Positions 963-21,784 of a DNA stretch of 64,000 nt are shown one piece after another (positions within the stretch are counted from its first letter, which is position 1; each line of letters starts with the position of its first letter). The translations under genes and the position numbers were made by a program. The DNA lies in the NCBI RefSeq assembly GCF_030811595.1, contig NZ_JAUSRB010000002.1:1426001-1490000 (forward strand), written 5' to 3'. Source of the stretch: Streptosporangium brasiliense. GTDB lineage: Bacteria; Actinomycetota; Actinomycetes; Streptosporangiales; Streptosporangiaceae. Under the pieces are notes generated by a model. It was given only the letters and a program-made list of their open reading frames with translations, did not search any database and was not told the origin of the DNA.

Positions 963-975
963 ACCTCCTCACCCC

Positions 976-1035
976 GGACCTCTCTACCTCGGACCTCTCT
1001 GCCTCGGACCTCTCTACCTCGGACCTCTCTACCTC
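976..1035. repeat. Tandem repeat, 4 x 15 bp
   Basis: Four consecutive copies of GGACCTCTCTACCTC (the second has one change, A to G) lie 14 bp after the stop of the DUF1232 gene. The repeat is in no gene that I can support. Confidence 0.9.
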
Positions 1036-1259
1036 GGGTCCGGCGGGCCCGGACCGCGTAACGAACGGGACGGTCATGGGACTGTGCAGGGAGAAGACTG
1101 CGGACATCCGGCGGTCAGGCCGGGGAGGAGAAGGTGTCGTCCCAGCTCAGGGCGGGAATCTTCTATCTCCGGGACTGGCCGCGCTCCGGAGCGCTTCAAC
1201 GGAGAGGACGCACCACGACGTCATGAATGTCCCAGCTGCCCGACCAGGAGGAGACAATC

Positions 1260-1910: not shown

Positions 1911-2191
1911 TGGAATCGGTTCAGCATCGAGACGGTAAGGCGGTCAGCGTCGTGAAGCGGTTCAGCTGCGACGAGGTGGTGGAACTCGTGACCGTCTACC
2001 TGGAGGGTGAGCTCGACGCGCCCAGGGGAGGCCGGTTCGAGGAACATCTCGGCGGCTGTGAGGGCTGCGAGCGCTACCTCGGCCAGTTCCGCGCCACCAT
2101 CGGCGCCCTCGGCGAGCTGCCGCCCACGGCCCTGCCCGGCGAAGCGCGCGAGCGGCTGCTGGCCGCCTTCCGCGACCGGGGACGGCCCTGA
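1910..2191 (+). CDS. Zinc-finger anti-sigma factor
   Basis: A 93-residue protein with the zf-HC2 (ZAS-like) signature H-x3-C-x2-C in EEHLGGCEGCERYL, after a helix that begins with a conserved Cys (FSCDEVVELVTVYLEGELD). No membrane segment is seen, so it is a short soluble anti-sigma factor, as in RsrA-type proteins. It shares TAGTG with the stop of the sigma gene and is presumably its cognate inhibitor. The start is taken at GTG 1910; GTG 1951 is an alternative. Redox or zinc sensing is possible but cannot be judged from sequence. Confidence 0.85.
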   Translation: MESVQHRDGKAVSVVKRFSCDEVVELVTVYLEGELDAPRGGRFEEHLGGCEGCERYLGQFRATIGALGELPPTALPGEARERLLAAFRDRGRP

Positions 2192-2197
2192 CGCCGG

Positions 2198-2494
2198 CTA
2201 CCGCCCGCCTCCCACGGCCCGGGACGGCCCTGGCCCCGGGCCGGAGAAGGCCACGCGCAGCCTCCTGAGCACCCCGCCCGTGACGCCGTCGCCCCGGAGG
2301 CAGCCGAGGGCCTCGACCATCGCCCGGATCTGCTCCAGATGGACCGAGCAGCCGGCGCACCCGGCCAGATGGGCCTCCATGCGCCGCCGCCGCCCGGCGG
2401 GGAGCGCCCCGTCGAGGTAGTCGGTGACGAGCCCGACGGCCTCACGGCAGCCGACCGGGCGCCGGGACCGGGATCCGGCTCGCATCATTCTCAC
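2198..2494 (-). CDS. Second zinc-finger anti-sigma-like protein, orphan
   Basis: A 98-residue protein with the same architecture as the anti-sigma factor that converges on it: a first Cys in VGCREAVGLVTDYLDGALP, then the H-x3-C-x2-C finger in MEAHLAGCAGCSVHLEQI. Stops of the two genes are six bases apart. No sigma factor lies upstream on its own strand; its 5' end instead faces egtA. It may regulate a sigma factor encoded elsewhere, or be a diverged duplicate of its neighbour. The C-terminal tail is Gly/Pro-rich and short. Confidence 0.75.
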   Translation of the reverse strand: MRMMRAGSRSRRPVGCREAVGLVTDYLDGALPAGRRRRMEAHLAGCAGCSVHLEQIRAMVEALGCLRGDGVTGGVLRRLRVAFSGPGPGPSRAVGGGR

Positions 2495-2533
2495 CTGTGC
2501 CCCATGTGACCGTAGTGCCGCTCGCGGTCGATC

Positions 2534-2587
2534 CGTTACACCCCGGCCCGCTGTAACGCTTGCGCGCCTCGCGGGTCTATAGACCCG
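2534..2587. promoter_or_regulatory. Two inverted repeats upstream of egtA
   Basis: In the 117-bp gap between the orphan anti-sigma-like gene and egtA there is a 7-bp-arm inverted repeat (CGTTACA 2534-2540, TGTAACG 2552-2558) and a perfect 16-bp palindrome, CGGGTCTATAGACCCG, at 2572-2587. The second ends 25 bp before the egtA ATG. Their position suggests operators or a promoter-overlapping site for the ergothioneine operon; the binding protein is unknown. Confidence 0.5.
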
Positions 2588-2611
2588 TACACATCGGGCA
2601 AAGGGGGCACG

Positions 2612-3838
2612 ATGATCGATCTGGCCGCCGAGGGCGCGCTGGTCCGGGGCGCTTCGGATGTGGCGGACTTCGCGCGAGGCTGCTTCCGCGGCTCCACCGG
2701 GGACCAGGTGGGGATCGAGCTGGAATTCCTGGTCTTCGACCGGGCCGCCCCCGCCCGCCAGGTCCCGCTGGCCAGGATCGCCGACGCGCTGCCCCCGCTG
2801 CCCGGCGGGAGCCGGGTGACCTTCGAACCGGGCGGCCAGCTCGAACTCTCCGGCCCGGCGGGTCCGCTGCCGGAGGCGATCGCCCGCCTCGCCGCCGACG
2901 TGAACGCCGCGCGCGCGGCCCTGCGGGAGGCGGGCCTGGCGCTGGCCGGGGTGGGTCTCGACCCGGTACGGCCAGCCCGACGGCAGCTACGGCTGCCCCG
3001 CTACGAGGCGATGGCCGAGTTCCTCGGCACGCCGTACGGGTCCCTGATGATGTGCTCGACGGCGTCGATCCAGGTCAACCTGGACCTGGGCGGCAGGCCC
3101 GCGGTCCGGTGGGAGCGCACGCACCTGCTGGGGCCCGTCCTGACGGCGGCCTTCGCCAACTCACCACTCAGCGGGGGCCGGCCGTGCGGGTGGATGTCGG
3201 GACGCCAGGCGGTGTGGGAGAACCTGGACCGGACCCGGACGGCCCCCGTCCCCGCGACCGGCGACCCGGCCTCGGCCTGGGCGGAATACCTGCTCGACGC
3301 CCGGCTCATGCTCGTACGCGAGGACGGTGAGCGGTGCCGCACGGTCCGCGACGGCTCGACCTTCCGCGACTGGCTGTCGGCCCCCACCCGCCCGCCGACC
3401 CTGGCGGACCTGGCCTACCACGCCACGACGATCTTCCCTCCGGTGCGGCCGCGCGGCTGGCTGGAGATCCGCTACCTCGACGCCCAGGACCCGGCGAGCT
3501 GGCCGGTGTGCGTGGCGGTGACCCACGCCCTCGTGATGGACGACCGCGCGGCCGACACGGCGCTGGCCGCCGCCGAGCCGTACGCGGGGATGTGGCCGTG
3601 GGCGGCGCGCCTCGGCCTGGCGGAGCCACGGCTGAGGAGCGCCGCCGAGACCTGTTTCGAGGCCGCCCTCGCGGCGCTGCCCCGCCTGGGCGCGGCCCCG
3701 GACCTGGTCCGCGAGGTGGCCGCGTTCGCCGACCGCCACGTGACGACCGGCCGCCCGCCGGCCGCGGACCTGCTGGATCTGGTGAAAGGGCCGGCGCGGA
3801 GCCTGTCGGCCTGGCTGACCGAGGAAGGACAGGCATGA
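2612..3838 (+). CDS. egtA: Glutamate-cysteine ligase of ergothioneine biosynthesis
   Basis: 408 residues, the usual length of EgtA. It joins glutamate and cysteine to give gamma-glutamylcysteine, the sulfur donor used by EgtB in actinomycetes. Family marks include GIELEFLVFD near the N-terminus (Glu metal ligands), FEPGGQLELSGP, SIQVNLDLG and LEIRYLDAQD. The start ATG 2612 follows AAAGGGGG. The stop overlaps the egtB start as ATGA, so the two are translationally coupled. Assignment rests on both the family motifs and the egtBCD genes that follow. Confidence 0.93.
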   Translation: MIDLAAEGALVRGASDVADFARGCFRGSTGDQVGIELEFLVFDRAAPARQVPLARIADALPPLPGGSRVTFEPGGQLELSGPAGPLPEAIARLAADVNAARAALREAGLALAGVGLDPVRPARRQLRLPRYEAMAEFLGTPYGSLMMCSTASIQVNLDLGGRPAVRWERTHLLGPVLTAAFANSPLSGGRPCGWMSGRQAVWENLDRTRTAPVPATGDPASAWAEYLLDARLMLVREDGERCRTVRDGSTFRDWLSAPTRPPTLADLAYHATTIFPPVRPRGWLEIRYLDAQDPASWPVCVAVTHALVMDDRAADTALAAAEPYAGMWPWAARLGLAEPRLRSAAETCFEAALAALPRLGAAPDLVREVAAFADRHVTTGRPPAADLLDLVKGPARSLSAWLTEEGQA

Positions 3839-5136
3839 ACGACTTCAAGGAACGCATCGCCGCCGAGCTGGTCGCGGTGCGTAACCGGTCGCTGGCCTAT
3901 ACCGACACCGAGGACGACCTGCTGGTCAGACAGCACTCTCCGTTGATGTCGCCGCTGGTGTGGGATCTGGCGCACGTGGGCAACTACGAGGAGCTGTGGG
4001 TGCTGCGGGAGGCCGGCGGGATCACCCCGCTCCGCCCCGAGATCGACGACCTGTACGACGCGTTCAAGCACCCGCGCAAGGACCGCCCGAGCCTGCCCAT
4101 CCTGGGGCCGGGCGAGGCGCGCCACTACATCGAGGGCGTGCGCGGCCGGGTGCTGGACGTCCTCGACGCGATCGACCTGGAGGGCCCCGACCCCCTGCAC
4201 CGGGACGCCTTCGTCTTCGGCCTGGTGATCCAGCACGAGCACCAGCACGACGAGACCATGCTCGCCACCCTGCAACTGTCGGAGGAGCCGGGCCTGGTCC
4301 GCGACGGCGGCCTGCCGTCCGGCGGGCCCGCGGGCGCCGAGGAGGTGCTCGTCCCCGCCGGTCCCTTCCTGATGGGCACCGACACCCAGCCCTGGGCCTA
4401 CGACAACGAACGCCCCGCCCACCGGGTCGACCTGGCCGCCTACTGGATCGACAGGCTCCCCGTCGGCAACCGCGCCTACACCGCCTTCATCGAGGACGGC
4501 GGCTACGACGACCCCCGCTGGTGGACGCCGGAGGGCTGGGGCTGGCGCCGGCAGACCCGCGCCCACGCCCCGCTGTTCTGGACCAGGGACGGGGGCATCT
4601 GGTGGCGCACCCGTTTCGGCCGGCCCGAGCCCGTGCCCATGGACGAGCCCGTCCAGCACGTCTGCTGGTACGAGGCCGACGCCTACGCCCGCTGGGCCGG
4701 CAAGCGGCTGCCCACCGAGGCCGAGTGGGAGAAGGCCTGCGGCTGGGATCCCGCGGCGGAGCGGTCGCGGACCTACCCGTGGGGTGACGACGCCCCCGGA
4801 CCCGGCCGGGCCAACCTCGGGCACCGGGCGGCGCGGCCCGCGCCGCTGGGCGCCTTCCCCGCCGGGGCGAGCGCCTACGGCGCCGAGCAGATGGTCGGCG
4901 ACGTGTGGGAGTGGACCGCCTCCCGGTTCCTGCCCTACCCCGGCTTCCGCAGCTTCCCCTACCGCGAGTACAGCGAGGTCTTCTTCGGCAAGGACTACCG
5001 GGTGCTGCGCGGCGGATCCTGGGCGGCCGACCCGGCCGCGGTCCGCACGACGTTCCGGAACTGGGACCATCCGATCCGCAGGCAGATCTTCTCCGGTTTC
5101 CGCTGCGCCCGGTCGGCCTCCCCGGAGCAGGCGTAG
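3835..5136 (+). CDS. egtB: Iron-dependent sulfoxide synthase EgtB
   Basis: 433 residues. EgtB uses O2 and non-haem iron to couple gamma-glutamylcysteine to hercynine (N-alpha-trimethylhistidine). The N-terminal DinB-like domain holds the iron ligands: His in WDLAHVGNYEELW and the HX3HXE motif in HEHQHDETM (about residues 138-146). The C-terminal FGE-sulfatase domain shows VPAGPFLMGTD, RLPTEAEWEKAC, VGDVWEWTAS and VLRGGSWAADP. The ATG start overlaps the egtA stop by four bases, and egtC begins directly after its TAG. Confidence 0.96.
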   Translation: MNDFKERIAAELVAVRNRSLAYTDTEDDLLVRQHSPLMSPLVWDLAHVGNYEELWVLREAGGITPLRPEIDDLYDAFKHPRKDRPSLPILGPGEARHYIEGVRGRVLDVLDAIDLEGPDPLHRDAFVFGLVIQHEHQHDETMLATLQLSEEPGLVRDGGLPSGGPAGAEEVLVPAGPFLMGTDTQPWAYDNERPAHRVDLAAYWIDRLPVGNRAYTAFIEDGGYDDPRWWTPEGWGWRRQTRAHAPLFWTRDGGIWWRTRFGRPEPVPMDEPVQHVCWYEADAYARWAGKRLPTEAEWEKACGWDPAAERSRTYPWGDDAPGPGRANLGHRAARPAPLGAFPAGASAYGAEQMVGDVWEWTASRFLPYPGFRSFPYREYSEVFFGKDYRVLRGGSWAADPAAVRTTFRNWDHPIRRQIFSGFRCARSASPEQA

Positions 5137-5841
5137 ATGTGCCGCCACGCCGCCTGGCTGGGCGCTCCCCGGACCCTCGCCTCGCTGATCCACGGACCCG
5201 AGCACGGCCTGCTCCGGCAGTCCTACGCCCCGCGCCTGCAGCGCCACGGCACGGTCAACGCCGACGGTTTCGGCATGGGCTGGTACGACGCCGCCCGCCC
5301 GGAGCCGGTCCGCTACCGCCGCTCCGTCCCCATCTGGACGGACGCCAACCTGCCCGCCCTCGCCCAGATCGGCCGCTCGGGCTGCCTGCTGGCCGCCATC
5401 CGGTCGGCGACCGTCGGCATGCCGATCGAGGAGAGCGCGACCGCGCCCTTCGCCGACGGGCCGTGGCTGCTCAGCCACAACGGCAGGGTCGCGCGGGAGG
5501 TGGTCCGCGGGCTCGCCCGCGACGCGGAGAGCGCCTGCGACTCCGCGTGGCTCGCCGCCGCGGTCTTCACCCGGCGACGCGCCGGGCTGCCGCTCGGCGA
5601 CGCGCTGGCGGAGGTCGTCACCCGGGCCGGGGCGGAGGACCCCGGCGCCCGCCTGAACCTGCTCGCCTGCGACGGCGCGTCGATCGCCGCGACCGTCTGG
5701 GGCGACACCCTCCACCTCCACCTCGACGACGGCGTGCTCGTGGCGAGCGAGCCGCTGGACGACCGGTCCGGCTGGCAGGCCGTACCGGACCGGAAACTGG
5801 TCCTCGCCTCTCCCGACGGCGTGTGCATCCAGCCACTGTGA
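5137..5841 (+). CDS. egtC: Gamma-glutamyl hercynylcysteine sulfoxide amidohydrolase
   Basis: 234 residues, class-II glutamine-amidotransferase fold. EgtC removes the gamma-glutamyl group from the EgtB product. The N-terminal Cys2 nucleophile is present (MCRHAAWLG), followed by typical NADGFGMGWYD and WLLSHNGRV motifs. The ATG follows the egtB stop with no gap, so the start is unambiguous. The next enzyme of the pathway, the C-S lyase EgtE, is not encoded nearby and must come from another locus or from a generic PLP lyase. Confidence 0.95.
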   Translation: MCRHAAWLGAPRTLASLIHGPEHGLLRQSYAPRLQRHGTVNADGFGMGWYDAARPEPVRYRRSVPIWTDANLPALAQIGRSGCLLAAIRSATVGMPIEESATAPFADGPWLLSHNGRVAREVVRGLARDAESACDSAWLAAAVFTRRRAGLPLGDALAEVVTRAGAEDPGARLNLLACDGASIAATVWGDTLHLHLDDGVLVASEPLDDRSGWQAVPDRKLVLASPDGVCIQPL

Positions 5842-5996
5842 GCGGACGGAGCGAGATCACCGCGAGACATGGCATCTCGGTCACGGGCCGGCGGGCCGCC
5901 GGGCGAGGAGGGACGTGACCGGGCGGATCGAGATCACCGGTAACCACAGCACCCCGGTCACGGGCCGACCGGCCGCCAGGCGAGGACGCCCCTGAC
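5840..5996. repeat. Imperfect 77-bp tandem duplication between egtC and egtD
   Basis: The gap after egtC holds two imperfect copies of a 77-bp unit (about 5842-5918 and 5919-5995). Shared blocks include CGAGATCACCG, GGTCACGGGCCG and GGCGAGGA, each 77 bp apart. No open frame of note is present. egtD starts 20 bp after the second copy behind an AGGAGG-type ribosome site. Confidence 0.75.
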
Positions 5997-6016
5997 CCAT
6001 CGACCCAGGAGGCCCC

Positions 6017-6997
6017 GTGTCCGTCAGCCAGTCATCCATGAATCTGGTCAACCATCTCGGTGACGACTACCTGCGTCAGGCACTCGAACACGACGTCCGC
6101 ACCGGACTGTCGTCGACGCCCAAATGGCTGCCGCCCAAGTGGTTCTACGACGCGGCCGGCAGCGATCTGTTCTCCCAGATCACCCGGCTGCCGGAGTATT
6201 ACCCCACCCGCCGCGAGCTGGCCATCCTGCGCCGGCAGTCCGTCGACATCGCCGCGCGCAGCGGCGCGGACACCCTGGTCGAGCTCGGCTCGGGGACCAG
6301 CGAGAAGACCGTCCTGCTGCTCGACGCCCTGTCGGCGGCGGGGACGCTGCGCACCTACACGCCGGTGGACGTCGACGCGGTCACCCTCGGCGACGCCGCG
6401 CGGCGCCTCACCACCCGCTACCCCGGCCTGGCCGTACGGGCCGTCTGCGCCGACTTCGAGCACCATCTGGCGCTGCTGCCGCGCGAGGGGCGGCGGATGG
6501 TGGCCTTCCTCGGCGGCACCATCGGCAACCTCGATCCGGCGGCACGCGAGGTGTTCCTCAAGGAGCTGCGCACCACCCTCCGGCCCGGCGACACTTTCCT
6601 GCTCGGAGCCGACCTGGTCAAGGACACCGGGCGGCTGGTCGCCGCCTACGACGACGCGGCCGGGGTGACCGCCGCCTTCAACCGCAACGTCCTGCGCGTG
6701 GTCAACCGGGAGCTGGACGCCGACTTCGAACCGGACGCGTTCGAGCACGTCGCGCTCTATGACATGCAGCACGACTGGATCGAGATGCGGCTGCGGGCGG
6801 GCCGGGCCATGCGGGTGCGGGTCGGCGACCTCGGCCTGACCGTCTCCTTCACGGCCGGGGAGGAGATGCGCACCGAGATCAGCGCCAAGTTCCGCCCCGA
6901 GGGACTGCGGGCGGAGCTCGCCGCGGCCGGGTTCGCGGTGAGCCGCCACTACACCGATCCGACCGGTGACTTCAGCCTCGTCCTGGCCCGCGTGTGA
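6017..6997 (+). CDS. egtD: L-histidine N-alpha-methyltransferase
   Basis: 326 residues, matching EgtD. It trimethylates the alpha-amino group of histidine with S-adenosylmethionine to give hercynine, the first step of ergothioneine synthesis. The SAM-binding motif is LVELGSGTSEKTVLLLDAL; further family marks are KWFYDAAGSDLFSQI near the N-terminus, FLGGTIGNLDP and LGADLVKD. The GTG start lies behind CAGGAGGCCCC. A 175-bp gap with a duplication separates it from egtC, so it may have its own promoter or be read through. Confidence 0.96.
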   Translation: MSVSQSSMNLVNHLGDDYLRQALEHDVRTGLSSTPKWLPPKWFYDAAGSDLFSQITRLPEYYPTRRELAILRRQSVDIAARSGADTLVELGSGTSEKTVLLLDALSAAGTLRTYTPVDVDAVTLGDAARRLTTRYPGLAVRAVCADFEHHLALLPREGRRMVAFLGGTIGNLDPAAREVFLKELRTTLRPGDTFLLGADLVKDTGRLVAAYDDAAGVTAAFNRNVLRVVNRELDADFEPDAFEHVALYDMQHDWIEMRLRAGRAMRVRVGDLGLTVSFTAGEEMRTEISAKFRPEGLRAELAAAGFAVSRHYTDPTGDFSLVLARV

Positions 6998-7309
6998 CCA
7001 CCGGGAGCCGGCGGCCGGCCACTGGCCGCCGGCTGACGGCGGCCGGGGACCGGCGGCGGCCGGTCTGGGGTCCACGGCCGCCGGCGGGCAGCGGGCGGCG
7101 GGTGGCAGGCGGCGGGCGGCAGGCGGGCGGCGGGCGGAGGTTCCGTGAGAGGTGTCATGCTCCCGTGCCCGCCGGGCCGCTGACATCGCCGGTACGGGGG
7201 ATATCCGTTCCCCCTCACCGGTGAGACCGAGGATCGCTCCCACCGGCGATCACTTTCCGGCGGCGGAAAACCAGGATTGCCTTATCCGCCAACCGCCTGG
7301 AGCCCTGAC
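6998..7309. repeat. Gene-free gap; low-complexity GC tract after egtD
   Basis: From the egtD stop to about 7140 the sequence is almost pure G and C built from variants of GGCCGGCGG and GCGGGCGGC, giving many overlapping inverted repeats; it could terminate egtD transcription but has no U-tract. From 7150 to 7309 the sequence is ordinary and probably holds the promoter of the next gene. No gene was recognised. Confidence 0.6.
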
Positions 7310-7915
7310 ATGAACCCCCGCTTCGCATTCATCGCCACCCCCCTGCTCGTCCTCGCCTACGGGATCATCCGGATCCTCGACGGGCTCGACGGCAGCAGGG
7401 GCCCCGGCCTCGCCTGGACCACCGGCCACCTCGCCTTCCTCGCCGCCCTGGCCCTGTTCGTCCCCGTCTTCTGGGAGATGCGCCGGATGGCGGGCCGCGG
7501 TGTCGTGGCCACGGTGAGCGCCGGGCTCGGGACCGTCGGCATCCTGGCCGCCGCCACACAGTTCGTCATCGACATCGTGGTCGGGTTCCTCTCCGCCGAC
7601 CACGCGGCGATGGGCGTCCTGTTCGACCGGGTCCAGGCCGTCCCCGGCGTCTCCATCGCGATCTACGACGGCGGCCCCTACCTCTTCTACCTCGGTCAGC
7701 TCGCCCTCGTCGTCCAGCTCGCCGTCATCGGCCGCGTCAAGGTCTGGACGCCGCTGCTGGTCCTGATCGACCTCGTCCTCCCGATCGTCGACCGCGACCT
7801 CATCCCGGTGGGCGCGATCTTCCTGCTCGTCTCCTTCGTCCCCCTCGCCCGCGAGCTGGCCCCCGCCGCCAGGCCCGCCGCCCACTCCGCCCGGCGCGCC
7901 ACCACCCACGCGTGA
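7310..7915 (+). CDS. Hypothetical multi-pass membrane protein
   Basis: 201 residues with about six hydrophobic segments (FIATPLLVLAYGIIRILDGL, a second after WTTGHLAFL, then four more) and a short hydrophilic C-terminal tail. The compact helix pattern with a first-loop His (TTGHLAFLAAL) is like DUF4386-type or related small actinobacterial membrane proteins, but I cannot name it. ATG 7310 is chosen over an upstream in-frame start because the helix begins right after it. Its stop overlaps a possible GTG start of the following sensor kinase, so the two could be co-transcribed. Confidence 0.65.
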   Translation: MNPRFAFIATPLLVLAYGIIRILDGLDGSRGPGLAWTTGHLAFLAALALFVPVFWEMRRMAGRGVVATVSAGLGTVGILAAATQFVIDIVVGFLSADHAAMGVLFDRVQAVPGVSIAIYDGGPYLFYLGQLALVVQLAVIGRVKVWTPLLVLIDLVLPIVDRDLIPVGAIFLLVSFVPLARELAPAARPAAHSARRATTHA

Positions 7916-8055
7916 GCAGCCCGGAACGGGCCGACCGGCAGGCCGCGTCCCGGCCGCCGGTCGGCCGCGCGTGGTCGTGGTCCGGGCGGTGGTCCCGGCT
8001 ACGGCCCCGGCCGTGGTCCCCCCGCCGTACCGGCGCGCCGGGGGAGGAAGCAGGA

Positions 8056-9231
8056 TTGGACACCGTGCCCGATCTGCCGTTCATCGCCCTGTTACGCCGC
8101 CGGATACGGACCCTTCCTCCCCAGTGGGTGGACGTGGCGCTCACCGCCCTGGTGATGGTGGTGCAGCTGTGGCCGTTCGTGGGCCGCGACAACCCCCACG
8201 ACGTCCCCTGGCACTGGTGGGGATACGTGGTCGTGGTCGTGGCCGTGACGCCGCTGGCCTGGCGGCGCCGGATGCCGGTGCCCGTGCTGATCTTCACCCT
8301 CCTGGCGACCTCCCTGTACGACCTCGCCGAGAACCTGCCGTCACAGCCGATCTGGTACGGCGGGCTGGTCGCGATGTACACCGTCGCCATGCGGTCCTCC
8401 CGCTGGGCCCGCCTGTCCATGATCGTCCTGGCGACCTGCGGCGGGATGCTGCTGGTCGGCTCGTCCGACACCGCGCTGCGCGGCATCGTGCTGTTCGTCG
8501 CCGCGTACGCGATCGGCAGGGCCGCCGCCGTCTCCCGCGCCTACGCGGCGGCCCTGGAGGAGCGGGCCGCCCGCCTGGAGCACGAGCGCCAGGTCGAGGC
8601 GGAGCGGGCCGCCGAACGGGAACGGGCCAGGATCGCGCACGACATGCACGACATCCTGGCCCACGCGGTGAGCCTCATGGTGGTCCAGGCCGAGGCGGGG
8701 CCCGTGGTGGTCAGGAGCGATCCGGCCAGGGCCGAGGCGGCCTTCGACGCGATCGCCGCCGCCGGGCGCGACGCGATGCTCCAGCTCCGGCGGATGCTGG
8801 GCGTGCTCAAGGAGGGAGAGGGGCCCCGCGCGCCGCAGCCCACCATCGGTGACCTGCCCACGCTGGCGGGCCAGGTCACGGGCACCGGGCTCGACGTGGC
8901 CTACAGCACCTCGGGCGAGCCCCGGCCGCTCCCTCCCGACGTCGAGGTCGCCGCCTACCGGATCACCCAGGAAGCGCTCACCAACATCGTCAAACACGCC
9001 GGCGCCTCCCGCGCCGACATCCGGCTCCGCTGGGACGACGACGCTCTGACGATCGACGTCACCGACGACGGCCCCGGCTCGGGCCGTTCCCTCCCCTCGG
9101 GCGGCAACGGCCTGATCGGCATCCAGGAGCGCGCCACCGCCTGTGGCGGCACCGCGACCGCGGGCCGCCGCGCCGACGGACCGGGCTTCCAGGTGTCGGT
9201 ACGGCTGCCGCTGCCCGCCACGGCCGCCTGA
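8056..9231 (+). CDS. Sensor histidine kinase (NarL-partner type), orphan
   Basis: 391 residues: four or five N-terminal membrane helices (to about residue 150), a coiled charged linker, then a HisKA_3 dimerisation domain with the phospho-acceptor His in IAHDMHDILAHAVSLMVVQA, and a HATPase domain (EALTNIVKHAG, DDGPGSG, GLIGIQERA). TTG 8056 is preferred because GGAGGAAG lies seven bases upstream; GTG 7912, overlapping the previous stop, is in frame and possible. No response regulator is adjacent on either side, so its partner is elsewhere. Confidence 0.85.
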   Translation: MDTVPDLPFIALLRRRIRTLPPQWVDVALTALVMVVQLWPFVGRDNPHDVPWHWWGYVVVVVAVTPLAWRRRMPVPVLIFTLLATSLYDLAENLPSQPIWYGGLVAMYTVAMRSSRWARLSMIVLATCGGMLLVGSSDTALRGIVLFVAAYAIGRAAAVSRAYAAALEERAARLEHERQVEAERAAERERARIAHDMHDILAHAVSLMVVQAEAGPVVVRSDPARAEAAFDAIAAAGRDAMLQLRRMLGVLKEGEGPRAPQPTIGDLPTLAGQVTGTGLDVAYSTSGEPRPLPPDVEVAAYRITQEALTNIVKHAGASRADIRLRWDDDALTIDVTDDGPGSGRSLPSGGNGLIGIQERATACGGTATAGRRADGPGFQVSVRLPLPATAA

Positions 9232-14270: not shown

Positions 14271-14674
14271 GCCGCCCCCCGCCAGGTCCAGGCGGTCATC
14301 ACCGCGGATGCGCCGAAGACGGCCATGCCGAGCGGGAAGTGCGCGGCGATGACACGCTCCTGTCCCAGCATGATCTGCAGCGTCTCGGCGGCCACGAGCG
14401 CCGCGCTCGCCCCGGCCGGCCACAGCGGGCCCCTTCCCGGCCGCCACAGCAGGATCGCGGACACGAGCTGCAGGTAGAGCATGGCGTGGGTGAACCCGCC
14501 GTTGCCGCGGTGCCAGGTGAGCATGTCCACGTCGCCGGTGACGAACAGTCCGGCCAGGGCCGCCTGTCCGAGCACGCCGAGAAGGTGCAGGGTGGCGCCG
14601 GCGCGTAACGACCAGACGGTCCAGCCGGGGGCGCGGGTGCGACGGGCGGTGGATGAGACGCTCATGAACGCCAT
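14267..14674 (-). CDS. Small membrane protein coupled to the multicopper oxidase
   Basis: 135 residues with four predicted membrane helices (one in LHLLGVLGQAALAGLFVTGD, two in the middle, one near LGMAVFGASAVMTAWTW). A conserved-looking HRGNGGFTHAMLYLQL loop and His residues in the membrane region (AAHFPLG) could bind haem or copper, but this is inference. Its stop overlaps the oxidase start by four bases, which suggests joint function. ATG 14674 or 14665 could be the start; neither has a strong ribosome site. Confidence 0.7.
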   Translation of the reverse strand: MAFMSVSSTARRTRAPGWTVWSLRAGATLHLLGVLGQAALAGLFVTGDVDMLTWHRGNGGFTHAMLYLQLVSAILLWRPGRGPLWPAGASAALVAAETLQIMLGQERVIAAHFPLGMAVFGASAVMTAWTWRGAA

Positions 14675-14696
14675 GCTGGCGTGCCCTGTCCGGGAG

Positions 14697-14762
14697 ATCG
14701 TCCCCCGTGGGCGGTGCTCCGCCGTACGTCCCGGGATGTACGGCGCGCCAGCGGGGGACGAT
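14697..14762. promoter_or_regulatory. Nested palindromes between oxidase operon and kinase operon
   Basis: An outer inverted repeat (ATCGTCCCCCG at 14697-14707 and CGGGGGACGAT at 14752-14762, perfect 11-bp arms) encloses a second near-perfect palindrome at 14721-14744, centred on CCCGGG with GCCGTAC/GTACGGC arms and one mismatched base pair. They lie in the divergent promoter region of the oxidase/membrane operon and the two-component pair, so they are good candidates for operators controlling one or both. Confidence 0.6.
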
Positions 14763-14840
14763 TGTACGACCACGGATGTACGCACGACCTCATCCGCCCG
14801 CCCGTCGGCCCCGCCGGTCCGGTGTCCTACCGTTTCGGGG

Positions 14841-15968
14841 ATGAAGAGCCGGAAGTTCGACGCGCTGATCACAGTGGCCGTGCTGACGTTGGGCGTCGCG
14901 GGCACCTACGGCAGGCTGTCCTCCTCGGGCATGCCCGAGCGCCCCCTGGACGCGCTCGGCCTGTCGTTGCTCGTGCTGCCGGCGCTCTCCCTCGCCTTCC
15001 GGCGTACCGCGCCGGTGTGGACCGGGGTGGTCGCGGTGGGGTGCGGCATCGCCTACTACGGCATGCGATATCCGGGGATCTTCGCCGCCGCGCCCGCCCT
15101 GATCGCGATCTACACGGCGGCGACCCTTGGGCGGCGGCGCCTGGCGGTCGTGCTCGCCGCGGCGCTGGCCGTGGGTGTCGGCGTCCTCGTCGCGCTGGCC
15201 GACACCGACCCGGAGCCCGGCGGCCTCAGCCTGCTCAGCGGCTGGCTGGTGGCGGTGGTGGTGGTCGGCGAGATGGTCCGCAACCGCCGCGCCTACCTGC
15301 ACGAGGTGGAGCAGCGGGCGGTCGAGGCCGAGCGCACCCGGGACGAGGCGGCGCTGCGCCGGGCGGGCGAGGAGCGGCTGTGGATCGCCCAGGAACTGCA
15401 TGACACGCTCACCCACGCCATCTCGGTCATCAACATCCAGGCCGCGGCGGCGACGCATCTGCTGGACCGCAGGCCGGAGCAGGCACGTGAGGCACTGGCC
15501 GCGATCAGGGATTCCGGCCACGAGGCCATGCGGGAGCTCCGCGCCACACTGGGCGTGCTCCGGCAGGTGGACGCCGAGGACCCCGGGACGGGGCTGGCCC
15601 GACTGCCCCGGCTGGTGGCCAGGGCGGAGGCGGTGGGCCTGCCGGTGAAGGTCACCGTGGTGGGCGAGGCCGGCATGCTCGCACCGGACGTCGATCGGGC
15701 GGCCTACCGCATCGCGCAGGAGGCGTTCACCAACGTGCTGCGCCACGCCGGCCCCGCGTCGATCACGTTGACGACCGAGTACCGTCCTGGAACGATCGTG
15801 CTCCGGGTGGCGGACGACGGGCGGTCGGACGCGACGGCCGCGGGGCAGGGGATGGGGATCATCGGCATGCGGGAGCGCGCGCTGGCCGTGGGCGGGTCCT
15901 TGACGGCGGGACCGCGCCCGGAGGGCGGGTTCGAGGTCCGGGCCGAGCTGCCGCTGGTGAGCTCATGA
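14841..15968 (+). CDS. Sensor histidine kinase
   Basis: 375 residues: four to five membrane helices in the first ~145 residues, a coiled linker (EVEQRAVEAERTRDEAALRR), HisKA_3 with the acceptor His in IAQELHDTLTHAISVINIQA, and a HATPase domain (AYRIAQEAFTNVLRHAG, VADDG, GMGIIGMRERA). It is the DesK/NarX-like class that pairs with NarL regulators. ATG 14841 is the first start just before the first helix. Its stop overlaps the regulator start as ATGA. Confidence 0.9.
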   Translation: MKSRKFDALITVAVLTLGVAGTYGRLSSSGMPERPLDALGLSLLVLPALSLAFRRTAPVWTGVVAVGCGIAYYGMRYPGIFAAAPALIAIYTAATLGRRRLAVVLAAALAVGVGVLVALADTDPEPGGLSLLSGWLVAVVVVGEMVRNRRAYLHEVEQRAVEAERTRDEAALRRAGEERLWIAQELHDTLTHAISVINIQAAAATHLLDRRPEQAREALAAIRDSGHEAMRELRATLGVLRQVDAEDPGTGLARLPRLVARAEAVGLPVKVTVVGEAGMLAPDVDRAAYRIAQEAFTNVLRHAGPASITLTTEYRPGTIVLRVADDGRSDATAAGQGMGIIGMRERALAVGGSLTAGPRPEGGFEVRAELPLVSS

Positions 15969-16627
15969 TCCGAGTGCTGCTGGCCGACGACCAGCCGTTG
16001 ATCCGCGCGGGCTTCCGGGCCCTGCTCGACTACGAGGACGACATCGAGGTGATCGGCGAGGCCGGGAACGGCGGCGAGGCCGTCGAGCTCTGCCGGGCGC
16101 TGCGGCCGGACGTGGCGCTGCTGGACGTCAGGATGCCCCTGCTCGACGGGATCCAGGCCACCCGGATGATCGGCTCGGACCCCGAGCTGAACGCGGTGCG
16201 CGTGGTGATCCTGACCAACTACGCCCTTGACGAATACGTCTTCGCCGCGCTCCGGGCCGGGGCCGGCGGCTTCCTGGTCAAGGACATCGAGCCTGTCGAA
16301 CTGCTGCAGGCGGTGCGCGTGGCGGCCCGCGGCGACGCGCTGCTGTCGCCCTCGGTCACCCGGCGGCTGATCGAGGAATACGTCTCCGCCCCGCCCAGGC
16401 CGGTGGCCGGCCCCGGCCTGGAACGGCTGACCGGGCGGGAGCGCGAGGTGCTGGCCCTGGTGGCGGCCGGCATGTCCAACGAGGAGATCGCCGGGCAGCT
16501 GGTCATCAGCCACGCCACCGCCAAGACCCACGTCAGCCGTACGATGACCAAGCTCGGCGCCCGCGACCGGGCCCAGCTCGTCGTCTTCGCCTACGAGTCG
16601 GGGCTGGTCACTCCGGGAGGCCGCTGA
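15965..16627 (+). CDS. NarL/FixJ-family response regulator
   Basis: 220 residues. The receiver domain has the acidic pair in LLADDQ, the phospho-acceptor Asp in VALLDVRMP and the conserved Lys in FLVKDIEP. The C-terminal LuxR-type helix-turn-helix is LTGREREVLALVAAGMSNEE followed by ATAKTHVSRTMTKL. It is translationally coupled to the kinase before it. The natural target nearest at hand is the palindrome-rich promoter region at 14.7 kb, which serves the multicopper oxidase operon; that link is inference. Confidence 0.92.
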   Translation: MIRVLLADDQPLIRAGFRALLDYEDDIEVIGEAGNGGEAVELCRALRPDVALLDVRMPLLDGIQATRMIGSDPELNAVRVVILTNYALDEYVFAALRAGAGGFLVKDIEPVELLQAVRVAARGDALLSPSVTRRLIEEYVSAPPRPVAGPGLERLTGREREVLALVAAGMSNEEIAGQLVISHATAKTHVSRTMTKLGARDRAQLVVFAYESGLVTPGGR

Positions 16628-16877: not shown

Positions 16878-17954
16878 GTGCACAGAATACTCACCCCTTC
16901 ACAGTGCGACATGAGCGATTACGTGGAGGCGTGCGGCGCTTTTGCCGCGGAAGGCGCGCGGCGTTTCCTCGTCGTAGGTGACAGGGCGCCGGCCGACGCG
17001 CTGCGGACCGCGCTCCGTTCCGGGCACCCGCCCGGCCGTGTCGTGGTCCACCACGCCGCTCCGGGCGCCGGGTCCGGCCCGGCCGCCGACGTGGTGGTCG
17101 GGCTGGCGGGCTGCGACCGCGGGCGCCTGCAGCGGGCGGTCGGGCGGAATCCACGGGCGCACGTCCTGCACGCCGCCCGGCGTGAGCCCTTCCTCGGCGT
17201 GGTCGCCCTGCACAAGAGCGGGACGAACCTGGTCGCCGAACTCGTGCGCGCCATGGGCTACGACGTCTCAGGAGAGGGCACGGGGCCCGCGCCCTACGAG
17301 GACGGGCTCTGGGAGAAGCACGAGGAGGACCATCTCGCGACCCTGGGGCCGGGCTCGGCGTATGTCGTCCATTCTCTCCCCATGCCCGCGGTGGGCGGCC
17401 CTGCGCAATATCCGCGCCCCCTCTTCTACGCGTGGTGCGAGAGAGAGTTCCCCGTCGTGTTCCACTATCGGGACCCGCGGGCCGTCGTGCTCTCCCTGAT
17501 CCGATATCTCCTGAGGCAGGGGGCCGGGAAGAGTTTCACCCGCCTGCCGTTCCACATGATGAACGCCAGGATGTTCGAGCGTCTCCCCACGCCCGAGCGG
17601 CGGCTGTCGCACGCGATCCGGAACCTGGGCCCCTATCTGGAGTGGTCGTTCACCGACAACGCGTGGCTGCTCGACCACCCCGACGTCTTCACCACCTCCT
17701 ACGAAGAGCTCGTGGGCGGCAGGGGCGGCGGTGACGACGGTCTCCGCGAGAACGCCGTCGCCCGGCTGATGGTCCTTCTCGGGGTCTGCGGCGATCCGTC
17801 CGCGATAGGGGAGCGGGCCTACAACCCGTCGGCGAGGACGTTCGTCCTGGGCCAGGCCCACCGGTGGAGGGACGAGTTCCCGGAGGAGCTCCTCGGCGAG
17901 TTCCAGGAGAGATACTCCACCATTCTCGACCGGTACGGATACGCGGGCCGGTGA
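16878..17954 (+). CDS. Sulfotransferase-like protein
   Basis: 358 residues. After an N-terminal ~100-residue region with a Rossmann-like beginning (RRFLVVGDRAPADALRTAL), a sulfotransferase core begins at VVALHKSGTNLVAELVRAMG, which matches the PAPS 5'-phosphosulfate loop (K-S-G-T-N). FHYRDPRAVVLSLIRYLL matches the 3'-phosphate-binding R..P...S region. GTG 16878 follows GGGGGAG; ATG 16911 is an alternative. The gene is followed 24 bp later by the dikinase gene on the same strand, so an operon is likely. The acceptor is unknown, and the N-terminal addition is unusual. Confidence 0.75.
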   Translation: MHRILTPSQCDMSDYVEACGAFAAEGARRFLVVGDRAPADALRTALRSGHPPGRVVVHHAAPGAGSGPAADVVVGLAGCDRGRLQRAVGRNPRAHVLHAARREPFLGVVALHKSGTNLVAELVRAMGYDVSGEGTGPAPYEDGLWEKHEEDHLATLGPGSAYVVHSLPMPAVGGPAQYPRPLFYAWCEREFPVVFHYRDPRAVVLSLIRYLLRQGAGKSFTRLPFHMMNARMFERLPTPERRLSHAIRNLGPYLEWSFTDNAWLLDHPDVFTTSYEELVGGRGGGDDGLRENAVARLMVLLGVCGDPSAIGERAYNPSARTFVLGQAHRWRDEFPEELLGEFQERYSTILDRYGYAGR

Positions 17955-17978
17955 GCGGAGGCGAGGGAGGGACCGACC

Positions 17979-20333
17979 GTGGAGCTCGGATCGAAGGCGG
18001 AGACGCTCGAATGTCTGGCCTCGGCGCTGCGGACGGCCCGGGTGCTGCCGCAGGTCCGCTTCACCGTGGCCGAATGGGAGAGGTCCCCCCATAGCGTGCT
18101 CGACCGTATCTTCGAGACCCCCTGGTCGGCCGCTCCCGTGATCGTCCGGAGCAGTTCGCTCGCGGAGGACCGCGAGGACGTCTCCCACGCCGGCGAGTTC
18201 CTGTCCGAGCTGGACGTCCTCGGCAGGAGCGCCGTACGCCGGTCGATCACGCGGGTGGCCTGCTCCTACGGCGGCGGCAGCCCGGACGACCAGATCTTCG
18301 TCCAGCCCATGCTGCGGGATGTGGCGCTCAGCGGTGTGGCCTTCACCGCCGACCCCACCACGGGCAGCCCGTATTTCGTGATCAACTACGACGACGCCTC
18401 GGGGACCACCGACTCGATCACGGCGGGGCGCTCCTGCGAGCCGAAGATCTACCTCCGGCACCGGGAGGCGCCCTCGGCCGCCCCCGTGCCGGAGCTCGCG
18501 GGGCTGTTCGAGGCGCTGGGTGAGCTGGAGGGCGTCCTCGGCCCCGACGTCCCGCTGGACGTCGAATTCGCGGTGGACACCGGGGGGCAGGTGTTCGTCC
18601 TTCAGGTGCGCAGGCTGGTCTGCGATGTCCTGCCCCCGCCCCGGCGGGCCCGGCTGGCCCGGGAGATCACCGAGGTCGAGTCGGCGATCCGTCGGCTGAG
18701 CGGGCCGCACCCCTACCTGTACGGTGACCGCACCCTGCTGGGCGTGATGCCGGACTGGAACCCGGCGGAGGTCGTCGGCGTACGGCCCCGCCCGCTGGCG
18801 CTGTCGCTGTACCGGCGGCTGCTGACCGACTCGGTCTGGAGCGCCAGCCGGGACGGCTACGGATACCGCGATCTGTCTGGGTTCCCGCTCCTGATCAGCC
18901 TGGCCGGCCAGCCCTACGTCGACGTGCGGGTGAGCCTCAACTCCTTCCTGCCCAAGGATGTCGAGGGGGAGCTGGCCGAGCGCCTGGTCAACCACTACCT
19001 GCGGCGGCTTGAGACCGAACCCGAGAACCACGACAAGATCGAGTTCGAGATCCTGCTGAGCTGCTACTCGCTGGACCTGCCGGACAGGCTCATGCGGCTG
19101 CGGGAGGAAGGGTTCAGCGCGCAGGAGTGCGGACGGCTCCTGTCCAGCCTGAGGACGTTGACCAACCGCGCCATCGGACCGGACGGCCCCTGGGCCAGGG
19201 ACCTCGCGCGCCTGTCCGAGCTGGGCCGGCGCTTCCACACCGTGACCGGCTCCGGACTCTCCGACATCGGCAAGATGCACTGGCTCATGGAGGACTGCAG
19301 GCGCTACGGGACGCTCCCGTTCGCCGGGTTGGCGAGGGTGGGATTCATCGCCGTGGAGCTGATGAGGTCACTGCGGACGCTCGACCCGCCGCTGCTCGAC
19401 GACGCGGAGTTCGAGGCGTTCATGCGGGGGGCGGCCAGCGTGACCTCGGAGCTGAACGCCGATCTCGCGACACTCGACCGGCGGGACTTCCTGCTGCGCC
19501 ACGGGCATCTCCGCCCCGGGACCTACGACATCCTCTCCCCCCGTTACGACGAGGCGCCGGACCACTATTTCGACTGGGACGCCGAGTGGGGCCGGCCCCA
19601 CCGCCCTCCCCCGGACCCGGTGCTCTCCGGTGCCCGGGCCGACCGCCTCGACCTGCTCCTGCGGCAGCACGGGATCCGCCTGGGAGCCTACGAGCTGCTG
19701 GATTTCGTGCGCGCCGCCATCGACGGCCGCGAGAGGGCGAAATACCTGTTCACCCGGAACCTGAGCGAGATGCTCCGCATCCTCGGCGGCTTCGCCCGGA
19801 AGTACGGATACACGCTGGAGGACTGCTCCTACGTCGACGCGGCCGTGATCGGTGATCTCTACGCGTCGAGCGGGGACCCCGGCCGTGTCATCGAGAGCGC
19901 CGTCGCGCGTGGGCGCGGATCATACGAGTCGACGCGCGCGATGACACTGCCCTCCCTGATCAGACGCCCCTGCGACGTGTGGGCCTTCGGCCGGGAGCGG
20001 GCCGAACCGAATTTCGTGACGCAGAAGAGGGCCTCGGGCCGGGTGGTCACACCGGATGACGATCCGCGGGACTTCAGGGGCGGAATATTGCTGATCACCG
20101 CGGCCGACCCCGGCTACGACTACATCTTCTCCCACGGGATCCAGGCTTTCGTCACGATGTACGGAGGGGCGAACTCCCACATGGCCATCCGCGCGGGGGA
20201 GCTGGGCGTGCCCGCGGTGATCGGCGCGGGAGAGGTGCTTTTCCGGAAATGGTCGCGCGCGACCGGACTGGAGATCGACTGCGCCGCCCGGCAGGTGCGG
20301 TGCACGGGGCTGCGGAACAGGTCAGGGCTCTGA
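17979..20333 (+). CDS. PEP-synthase/rifampin-phosphotransferase-like dikinase
   Basis: 784 residues in three parts. Residues ~1-215 form the PPDK/PEP-synthase ATP-grasp domain (LGSKAETL, VIVRSSSLAEDREDVSHAGE, FVQPMLRDVALSGVAFTADP, DVEFAVDTGGQVFVLQVRRL). Residues ~230-690 are a long helical domain with no similarity that I recognise. Residues ~700-775 are the swivelling phosphohistidine domain with the catalytic His at about 734 (YGGANSHMAIRAGELGVPAV). There is no PEP-binding TIM barrel, so, as in rifampin phosphotransferase, ATP would charge the His and the phosphate would pass to another substrate. GTG 17979 is the start. Confidence 0.8.
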   Translation: MELGSKAETLECLASALRTARVLPQVRFTVAEWERSPHSVLDRIFETPWSAAPVIVRSSSLAEDREDVSHAGEFLSELDVLGRSAVRRSITRVACSYGGGSPDDQIFVQPMLRDVALSGVAFTADPTTGSPYFVINYDDASGTTDSITAGRSCEPKIYLRHREAPSAAPVPELAGLFEALGELEGVLGPDVPLDVEFAVDTGGQVFVLQVRRLVCDVLPPPRRARLAREITEVESAIRRLSGPHPYLYGDRTLLGVMPDWNPAEVVGVRPRPLALSLYRRLLTDSVWSASRDGYGYRDLSGFPLLISLAGQPYVDVRVSLNSFLPKDVEGELAERLVNHYLRRLETEPENHDKIEFEILLSCYSLDLPDRLMRLREEGFSAQECGRLLSSLRTLTNRAIGPDGPWARDLARLSELGRRFHTVTGSGLSDIGKMHWLMEDCRRYGTLPFAGLARVGFIAVELMRSLRTLDPPLLDDAEFEAFMRGAASVTSELNADLATLDRRDFLLRHGHLRPGTYDILSPRYDEAPDHYFDWDAEWGRPHRPPPDPVLSGARADRLDLLLRQHGIRLGAYELLDFVRAAIDGRERAKYLFTRNLSEMLRILGGFARKYGYTLEDCSYVDAAVIGDLYASSGDPGRVIESAVARGRGSYESTRAMTLPSLIRRPCDVWAFGRERAEPNFVTQKRASGRVVTPDDDPRDFRGGILLITAADPGYDYIFSHGIQAFVTMYGGANSHMAIRAGELGVPAVIGAGEVLFRKWSRATGLEIDCAARQVRCTGLRNRSGL

Positions 20334-20397
20334 GGCCGGCCGCGGACCGGCTCCGGGAGCGCCATGCTCGCAGGCATCGGGAATCGAGGGGATCGCC

Positions 20398-20991
20398 GTG
20401 GCCCACGCCGTCACCATCGCCACCCTGGGACATCTGCCGTCCCGGGACAACCGGCTCGGTCTCCGGTCGCGCGACCAGGAGGTCCTCCCGGAGGCGCTGC
20501 GCCGCTTCAGGGACGGGCTCGGCCCGGCGCTGCAGATCCTCAGATCCCTGGCTCCCGTATACCGCGCGGTCTACTGCCCCACCACGCTCAGGCACCTGAC
20601 CAGCGCCAGAGTGGTCTCCGACCTCTTCGGGATCCCCGCCCCGGTCCCGGACGCCCGGATCAACAACGTCGACTACGGGATCCACAAGGGCAGGCCCCTG
20701 GAGGAGACGCCACGCAGGTCCGCCGCCGTCGACGGCCCCTACGAGGGCGGCACGTCCTGGACGCACGTGGCGGGACAGTGGCGTTCCTTCTTCGAGGACC
20801 GGCTCAGGAGGCACGACGGGCAGGCCGTGCTCCTGGCCGGCCAGTCGGGGGCATGCCCGGTGATGATGGCCCACATCTGTGACGACGTGCCGCTGGCCGC
20901 CGCCCTGAGCGACCCCCGGCTCGACATCCCGCTCCTCGACGCCCGCGGTCCGGCGCCCTCCGTCTCGGTGTGGACCTACCGGTGGCGCTGA
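20398..20991 (+). CDS. Histidine-phosphatase-like protein lacking catalytic residues
   Basis: 197 residues. The layout follows the phosphoglycerate-mutase/histidine-phosphatase fold: an N-terminal strand and loop (IATLGHLPSRDNRLG), a VYCPTTLRHLTSARVVSDLF segment equal to the usual SS.L.RA..TA helix, INNVDYGIHKGRPLEE in the E-x-x-[FY]-G-x-x-x-G position, and GGTSWTHVAGQWRSFFEDRL. The RHG triad reads GHL and the second catalytic His (normally SHGG) reads QSGA, so phosphatase activity is doubtful. GTG 20398 start; it follows the dikinase by 64 bp and probably belongs to its operon. Confidence 0.65.
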   Translation: MAHAVTIATLGHLPSRDNRLGLRSRDQEVLPEALRRFRDGLGPALQILRSLAPVYRAVYCPTTLRHLTSARVVSDLFGIPAPVPDARINNVDYGIHKGRPLEETPRRSAAVDGPYEGGTSWTHVAGQWRSFFEDRLRRHDGQAVLLAGQSGACPVMMAHICDDVPLAAALSDPRLDIPLLDARGPAPSVSVWTYRWR

Positions 20992-21277: not shown

Positions 21278-21784
21278 ATGGCGGACTACGGCGTGACCGG
21301 AGCGCGGGTGGACCTGGAGACCACCGTCGACATGCCGCCCGAGCGGCTGTGGGAGCTCATCACGGCCGTGCACCGCATCGGCGAGTGGAGCCCGGAGTGC
21401 GAGGAGGGCTCCTGGCTCGGCGACGACGCCCCGGAGCCGCGGGAGGGGGTGCGCTTCCAGGGCCGCAACCGCCGGGAGGGGAGGGTCTGGACGGTGACCG
21501 GCGTGGTCACCGAGGTGGAGCGCCCGCGCACGTTCGCGTGGGTGATGCTCGACCGCGACGGCGACCCGGAGCGCCCGTCGTCGAGGTGGCGCTACGAGCT
21601 GGAGCCGGGCGACTCCCCGGACCGGACCCTGGTCCGTCACAGCTTCGTCCACGGCCCCGGGCAGAGCGGCCTGCGCGAGATGATCCAGAGCAACCCCGAG
21701 ATCGCCGAGCTCATTCTCGACGTGCGCCTGGGCGAGCTGCGCAAGCACATGACCGAGACCCTCGGCGCGATGACGCGCCAGTGA
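21278..21784 (+). CDS. SRPBCC (START-like) family protein
   Basis: 168 residues with the polyketide-cyclase/dehydrase pattern: VDLETTVDMPPERLWELITA at the start, IGEWSPECEEGSWL, a central FQGRNRR...VWTVTGVVTEVE and a C-terminal long helix. These proteins bind hydrophobic ligands in a helix-grip cavity; the ligand is unknown. ATG 21278 has GGAGGA seven bases upstream; GTG 21263 is an alternative. The preceding 286-bp gap holds a small direct repeat (GCGGACCCGCTG at 21020 and 21040) and nothing else that I could support. Confidence 0.8.
   Translation: MADYGVTGARVDLETTVDMPPERLWELITAVHRIGEWSPECEEGSWLGDDAPEPREGVRFQGRNRREGRVWTVTGVVTEVERPRTFAWVMLDRDGDPERPSSRWRYELEPGDSPDRTLVRHSFVHGPGQSGLREMIQSNPEIAELILDVRLGELRKHMTETLGAMTRQ

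What the first reader, a model, noticed from the sequence alone, without database searches (positions are those of the whole stretch)
16878..20991. Undescribed-looking trio: sulfotransferase-like, ATP-grasp/phosphohistidine dikinase, inactive histidine phosphatase
Seen: three co-directional genes with gaps of 24 and 64 bp. The dikinase has the rifampin-phosphotransferase plan (ATP-grasp, long middle domain, His swivel, no PEP barrel) but an unrelated middle domain, which in Rph holds the substrate. The first protein has a PAPS-type loop behind an unusual N-terminal domain. Inference: they may phosphorylate and sulfate, or phospho-activate, a small molecule or glycan, with the third protein as a binding or scaffold subunit.
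Basis: partly seen in the sequence, partly recalled or inferred. Interest (0 to 1): 0.8.

Follow-up and report, generated by a model that had tools for sequence, protein, structure and literature searches.

The report
Phosphoramidate-type kinase, sulfotransferase, pseudophosphatase trio
Three adjacent actinomycete genes pair an enzyme of the family that puts phosphate onto the nitrogen of glutamine (known from Campylobacter's capsule) with a sulfotransferase and a crippled phosphatase, and lack the usual next steps, so they probably make an unusual small molecule with a phosphorus-nitrogen bond by a route not yet described.

Summary
In detail: three intact co-directional genes at the stated coordinates. 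The 'dikinase' is not an orphan Rph relative. It is a full-length member of NCBIfam NF004508 (847 bits). In 85 of 91 loci examined its relatives stand beside a gamma-glutamyl-CDP-amidate-hydrolase-like gene, in 85 beside a cytidylyltransferase, and in 73 beside an APS-kinase-like gene. That is the gene set which in Campylobacter turns L-glutamine into 3'-phospho-CDP-phosphoramidate, so the protein is very probably an L-glutamine N-kinase. Our genome lacks orthologues of those partners. A second genome of another genus (G202) carries the same cassette, in the order kinase-sulfotransferase-phosphatase. There the sulfotransferase and phosphatase-like proteins are 65% identical to ours but the kinase only 35%, and the two kinases do not form one clade (AU p 3e-5). 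The pair has thus been joined to glutamine kinases of two lineages, which argues for a shared product pathway. Protein 1 is a PAPS-type sulfotransferase. Protein 3 keeps the nucleophilic histidine but lost the other catalytic residues. The predicted product is a phosphoramidate metabolite, perhaps sulfonated as in phaseolotoxin, made without CDP activation. No biochemistry is known. New variant of a known kind.

The parts
16878..17954 (+). Protein 1 (P0001, 358 aa): sulfotransferase-superfamily protein with a ~105-residue N-terminal domain
   Evidence: PF00685 matches 6 of 6 family members, best 3.7e-10, P0001 itself only 13.4 bits; PDB profile hits are mostly sulfotransferases; Foldseek top 14 all sulfotransferase-fold structures, the best ones with PAP bound, on a low-confidence model
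16878..17192 (+). N-terminal domain of protein 1 (residues 1-105), probably half-Rossmann; found otherwise only in the G202 orthologue
   Evidence: HMM of this part hits only the two orthologues; aligned by MAFFT with the N-terminal part of the L111 sulfotransferase (weak)
17208..17231 (+). PAPS 5'-phosphosulfate-binding loop LHKSGTNL (residues 111-118)
   Evidence: K113 S114 G115 T116 L118 invariant in 6 relatives
17370..17372 (+). H165, candidate catalytic base (position of the THLP motif of SULTs)
   Evidence: VHSLPMP conserved in both trio members; assignment from knowledge of SULTs
17466..17495 (+). 3'-phosphate-binding motif YRDPRAVVLS (residues 197-206)
   Evidence: Y197 R198 D199 P200 R201 S206 invariant
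17979..20333 (+). Protein 2 (784 aa): L-glutamine-kinase-family ATP-grasp / His-swivel kinase
   Evidence: NF004508 847 bits, full length; 80 relatives at 41-51% identity; keeps 122 of 128 family-conserved residues; AlphaFold pLDDT 88.5
20178..20180 (+). H734, phospho-carrier histidine of the swivel domain
   Evidence: invariant in A9; GGANSHMAI
20398..20991 (+). Protein 3 (P0003, 197 aa): degenerate histidine-phosphatase-superfamily protein
   Evidence: PF00300; 65% identical orthologue in G202
20431..20433 (+). H12 of protein 3, aligned with the nucleophilic His of the superfamily
   Evidence: alignment A8; conserved in G202
20842..20844 (+). Q149 of protein 3, replaces the second catalytic His
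   Evidence: alignment A8; conserved in G202

Best explanation
The three genes form a compact cassette for a phosphoramidate (P-N bond) metabolite. [quoted passage not shown] Step 2 (shown by absence, in this genome): the usual continuation through CDP-glutamine, CDP-amidate and 3'-phospho-CDP-amidate is missing. Step 3 (inference): protein 1 binds a 3'-phosphonucleotide, most likely PAPS, and sulfonates the phosphoramidate or its acceptor. Step 4 (weak inference): protein 3, which keeps its nucleophilic His but lost the groups needed to hydrolyse a phospho-His, handles or transfers the N-phosphoryl group instead of hydrolysing it, taking the place of the missing hydrolase and cytidylyltransferase. 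The nearest chemical precedent is the N-sulfo-diaminophosphinyl group of phaseolotoxin, whose cluster also pairs a dikinase-like protein with a sulfotransferase and a phosphatase-like protein.
For: Kinase family. Partner genes in 85, 85 and 73 of 91 loci; the hydrolase neighbours' best NCBIfam model is gamma-glutamyl-CDP-amidate hydrolase NF045546 in 8 of 8 tested. Campylobacter Cj1418 = L-glutamine kinase; Cj1415-1418 make CDP-phosphoramidate 3'-phosphate (PMC10971088, PMC11800397). Conserved substrate domain. Trio recurs in G202 with another gene order and another kinase lineage. No partner orthologues in G000 (59.6, 81.1, 98.5 bits against at least 146, 218, 153 for genuine neighbours). G202 likewise for hydrolase and cytidylyltransferase (74.5 and 86.1 bits). 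Sulfotransferase features. Phaseolotoxin parallel.
Against: No biochemistry, and the Cj1418 sequence itself could not be fetched for direct comparison. Kinase, hydrolase and sulfotransferase scores are family-level: NF045546 hits are below its equivalog cut-off, and P0001 alone is below the Pfam cut-off. Only two examples of the trio. The roles of proteins 1 and 3 rest on residues and context. Tyr508, present in all 88 CDP-type kinases, is His in both trio kinases, so substrate specificity may have shifted.
Confidence: 0.5

Rival explanations
1. The trio is the transferase end of an ordinary CDP-phosphoramidate pathway. Protein 1 is the phosphoramidate transferase using 3'-phospho-CDP-amidate (a PAPS look-alike), and the middle enzymes are supplied by distant paralogues elsewhere in the genome.
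For: Sulfotransferase-fold genes stand in 40 of 74 kinase loci over 15 kb, 38 of them with the APS-kinase-like gene (Fisher p 0.009); 10 of 10 tested are Pfam sulfotransferases, some with an N-terminal PglD-like domain. G000 has distant relatives of all three enzymes.
Against: The paralogues in G000 score at the background seen in every relative examined, far below genuine neighbours; both trio genomes lack hydrolase and cytidylyltransferase orthologues.
Confidence: 0.15
2. The kinase has changed substrate and phosphorylates something other than glutamine (an alcohol or another amide). The trio phosphorylates and sulfonates that molecule.
For: Rph is the nearest solved structure and is an O-kinase; Tyr508 to His in both trio kinases; no CDP partners.
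Against: The window kinase keeps 122 of 128 family-conserved residues; two separate kinase lineages of the same family were recruited, which is expected if the common product matters.
Confidence: 0.25
3. A drug-modifying cassette: Rph-like phosphorylation and sulfonation of an antibiotic for self-resistance.
For: Rph-like architecture.
Against: Family and relatives' context are biosynthetic; NCBIfam Rph models match only the shared ATP-grasp and swivel regions at 19-33 bits; no biosynthetic cluster adjoins.
Confidence: 0.05

Closest known systems
L-glutamine kinase (Cj1418, EC 2.7.3.13) and the O-methyl phosphoramidate capsule pathway of Campylobacter jejuni (Cj1415-Cj1418)
   Same: ATP-grasp / middle / His-swivel kinase family; relatives at 41-51% identity stand beside the same set of partner gene families
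   Different: Here the CDP-glutamine hydrolase, cytidylyltransferase and 3'-kinase are absent and replaced by a sulfotransferase and a degenerate histidine phosphatase; no capsule genes around
Rifampin phosphotransferase (Rph)
   Same: Domain order and nearest solved fold over the full length
   Different: No Rph-specific sequence match outside the shared domains; different family and context
Phaseolotoxin (Pht) cluster: PhtL dikinase-like protein proposed for N-P bond formation, sulfotransferase-like and CYTH-phosphatase-like products among PhtABC, PhtS APS kinase (PMC11278893, PMC3927611)
   Same: Combination of dikinase-like protein, sulfotransferase and phosphatase-like protein; product has N-P and N-S bonds
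   Different: Sequence relation not tested; the phosphatase-like protein there is CYTH-like, not histidine phosphatase; no peptide-assembly genes here
Sulfotransferases of actinomycete natural-product loci (FDLD class I lanthipeptide loci on Streptomyces plasmids; NRPS and N-hydroxylase loci in G003 and G038)
   Same: Closest homologues of the catalytic part of protein 1 outside the trio (31-33% identity)
   Different: They lack the N-terminal domain and are not linked to a glutamine kinase

Membership tests
L-glutamine kinase family (NF004508 / Cj1418-like) | Full-length match to the family model above its curated cut-off | tested here: met
   847 bits against cut-off 501, residues 8-783
L-glutamine kinase family (NF004508 / Cj1418-like) | Conserved ATP-grasp, middle-domain and swivel-His residues | tested here: met
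   122 of 128 columns kept; H734 invariant
L-glutamine kinase family (NF004508 / Cj1418-like) | Direct homology to biochemically proven Cj1418 | not tested
   Cj1418 sequence was not in any collection reachable after the single genome scan
L-glutamine kinase family (NF004508 / Cj1418-like) | ATP-dependent N-phosphorylation of L-Gln, AMP and Pi release | not testable with these tools
   needs assay
CDP-phosphoramidate (MeOPN-type) pathway | Gamma-glutamyl-CDP-amidate hydrolase and phosphoglutamine cytidylyltransferase orthologues in the genome | tested here: not met
   Best 59.6 and 81.1 bits in G000; genuine neighbours at least 146 and 218
CDP-phosphoramidate (MeOPN-type) pathway | CDP-amidate 3'-kinase (APS-kinase-like) orthologue | tested here: not met
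   Best 98.5 bits in a 421-aa frame that reads as ATP sulfurylase/APS kinase; genuine neighbours at least 153
Sulfotransferase superfamily | 5'-PSB loop, 3'-PB motif and C-terminal GxxxxW motif | tested here: met
   Invariant in six relatives; PF00685 in 6 of 6; Foldseek
Sulfotransferase superfamily | PAPS as donor | not testable with these tools
   3'-phospho-CDP-amidate is an alternative donor in this gene family's context
Histidine phosphatase superfamily, active | Two catalytic His and acid Glu | tested here: not met
   First His kept (H12), second His is Gln149, Glu is Asn
Rifampin phosphotransferase | Match to Rph family model across the rifampin-binding domain | tested here: not met
   NF041857 32.9 bits against cut-off 999, best stretch 696-758 only

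The most novel reading that the evidence does not exclude
A CDP-independent phosphoramidate pathway: N-phospho-glutamine made by a glutamine kinase is converted by a repurposed histidine phosphatase (covalent N-phosphohistidine chemistry without hydrolysis) and a PAPS-dependent sulfotransferase into a sulfonated phosphoramidate natural product. The sulfotransferase/phosphatase module has been joined to glutamine kinases of two lineages.
Probability: 0.25. Interest if true: 0.82.

Novelty: new variant of a known kind. Interest (0 to 1): 0.62.

Why it matters
P-N bonds are rare in natural products and very few enzymes that make them are known. The trio gives a minimal, three-gene actinomycete system with a predicted first step that can be assayed at once. 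The survey suggests that glutamine kinases are far more widespread than Campylobacter capsules (over 500 candidate stretches in one scan), and that sulfotransferase-fold proteins may be the missing phosphoramidate transferases, because the activated donor mimics PAPS. The change of kinase lineage beside a conserved sulfotransferase/phosphatase pair is a clean evolutionary sign that phospho-glutamine is what the pair needs.

Tried and rejected
Anti-phage defence: no PADLOC match. Homologues of the A. lipoferum sulfotransferase and histidine phosphatase as orthologues of ours: no significant match. Histidine phosphatase as a regular part of CDP-type clusters: seen beside only one or two of 91 kinases. 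Own-genome hydrolase, cytidylyltransferase and APS-kinase hits as pathway members: background level and unrelated contexts. Horizontal acquisition by composition: GC3 of the three genes 0.88-0.93 against a window mean of 0.92, not informative. AU test on all 92 kinases did not finish; repeated on 26 rows. P0001 structure: poor model (pLDDT 55.8), used only as support. Papers PMC6643271 and PMC5629633 are not held. No paper names PRK05849 or links phosphoramidate, sulfotransferase and actinomycete clusters in the sense sought.

Full report
Observation. They sit between a histidine kinase/response regulator pair (14592-16627) and a polyketide-cyclase-like SRPBCC gene (21278-21784). The window is C2:1426001-1490000 of a 10.5 Mb genome.

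What the dikinase is. It matches NCBIfam NF004508 (PRK05849, 'hypothetical protein') over its whole length with 847 bits, cut-off 501; Rph and PEP-synthase models match only the shared ATP-grasp and swivel regions. Plasmid relatives (33-48% identity) lie beside genes annotated as gamma-glutamyl-gamma-aminobutyrate hydrolase family, phosphocholine cytidylyltransferase family, adenylyl-sulfate kinase and SAM methyltransferases. Of 91 kinase loci, 85 have the hydrolase, 85 the cytidylyltransferase and 73 the APS-kinase-like gene. Of the few that lack both hydrolase and cytidylyltransferase, one is a disrupted plasmid copy, one an orphan in Clostridium, one a contig end, and one is the second trio. 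All eight hydrolases tested hit NF045546, gamma-glutamyl-CDP-amidate hydrolase, first, though below its equivalog cut-off. [quoted passage not shown] The gene set is the same, so I assign the family to glutamine kinase; direct comparison with Cj1418 was not possible. The window protein keeps 122 of the 128 residues conserved in 95% of 88 CDP-type kinases, including H734.

Middle domain. The AlphaFold model is good (pLDDT 88.5). Its best solved matches over the full length are Rph structures (Foldseek E 3e-19, 15% identity; VIA Z 15-18 with 513-617 residues aligned at 10-11 A, as expected for moving domains).

The trio is real but rare. Searching the host's family (343 genomes) found six kinases above the family cut-off. 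Four are CDP-type, with hydrolase and cytidylyltransferase adjoining (G529, which carries the same sequence as Actinoallomurus iriomotensis, G636, G676, G573). Two are trio-type: the window and G202. G202 has kinase (893 aa, N-terminal extension), sulfotransferase (344 aa) and phosphatase-like protein (197 aa) in that order, with a gap of 25 bp and then none, in an unrelated neighbourhood. Protein 1 and protein 3 are each 65% identical between the two genomes, protein 1 including the N-terminal domain, whereas the kinases are 35% identical. In trees G202's kinase is sister to the CDP-type kinase of G573 (100/100), while the window kinase falls in the main clade; one clade for the two trio kinases is rejected (AU p 3e-5; p 0.009 with G573 added). 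The conserved pair has therefore been joined to kinases of two lineages.

What is missing. Profiles of the three partner enzymes find in G000 nothing above 59.6, 81.1 and 98.5 bits. Genuine neighbours score at least 146, 218 and 153, and every related genome searched has background hits of the size seen in G000. G202 likewise lacks hydrolase (74.5) and cytidylyltransferase (86.1) orthologues; its APS-kinase complement was not searched. The window itself has none.

Protein 1. All six relatives match PF00685, profile hits in the PDB are mostly sulfotransferases, and even a poor model returns 14 sulfotransferase-fold structures first. The 5'-loop (KSGT), the 3'-phosphate site (YRDPR....S) and the C-terminal G....W are invariant. 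Its nearest relatives outside the trio lie in natural-product loci: class I lanthipeptides, NRPS/halogenase and hydroxylase loci. A wider point emerged: sulfotransferase-fold genes stand in 40 of 74 kinase loci over 15 kb, 38 with the APS-kinase-like gene (Fisher p 0.009), 10 of 10 tested confirmed by Pfam, several with an N-terminal PglD-like domain. Since the CDP pathway ends in a 3'-phospho-nucleoside donor, a PAPS look-alike, these are candidate phosphoramidate transferases (inference). In the trio that donor cannot be made by known enzymes, so PAPS is the likelier donor (inference).

Protein 3. It belongs to the histidine-phosphatase superfamily. Aligned with its nearest relatives (an 'ETHS' subfamily), H12 occupies the nucleophile position, Q149 the second His, and Asn the acid Glu; all are the same in G202. 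It is probably not a phosphatase, but a phospho-His or phosphoramidate-handling role is possible. Histidine phosphatases are not a regular part of CDP-type loci.

Mechanism and confidence. Kinase acts on the nitrogen of glutamine or a near analogue: about 0.8. The trio serves a phosphoramidate metabolite: about 0.6. PAPS donor for protein 1: about 0.5. Phosphoryl handling by protein 3: about 0.25. [quoted passage not shown] PMC3927611). Whether those proteins are homologous to ours was not tested.

Caution. Tyr508, present in all 88 CDP-type kinases, is His in both trio kinases. This could mark altered specificity or be chance, given 6 and 22 changed positions.

Noticed in passing
L043:8386-10014, L086:7523-9199, L111:8066-9715, L115:5987-6871 and about 36 more loci: Sulfotransferase-fold proteins recur in glutamine-kinase/CDP-amidate clusters, mostly together with the APS-kinase-like 3'-kinase; candidate phosphoramidate transferases using a PAPS look-alike donor.
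   Followed up: partly
L146:9499-9987 (G048) and L147 near 4426-4674 (G010): C-terminal fragments of a glutamine-kinase-like gene (model positions 611-788 and 686-769) in two relatives, probably decayed or displaced copies.
   Followed up: no
L145 (G038), 907-8790: Cluster with a methionyl-tRNA-synthetase-like protein, a cupin, a lysine-N-hydroxylase-like protein and a protein-1-like sulfotransferase; resembles hydrazine-forming natural-product loci.
   Followed up: no
L170:9620-10597, L171:9473-10507: Sulfotransferase genes inside FDLD-type class I lanthipeptide loci on Streptomyces plasmids, suggesting sulfonated lanthipeptides.
   Followed up: no
L041:9998-12325: Orphan glutamine kinase in Clostridium guangxiense, with no hydrolase, cytidylyltransferase, APS-kinase-like gene or sulfotransferase detected nearby; another possible CDP-independent use of phospho-glutamine.
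   Followed up: partly
L152:8372-8795 and L169:8619-8873: N-terminal extension of roughly 85-140 residues on the G202/G573 kinase lineage, function unknown.
   Followed up: no
window 5137-6997: Two genes that read as EgtC- and EgtD-like (ergothioneine biosynthesis), judged from sequence only.
   Followed up: no
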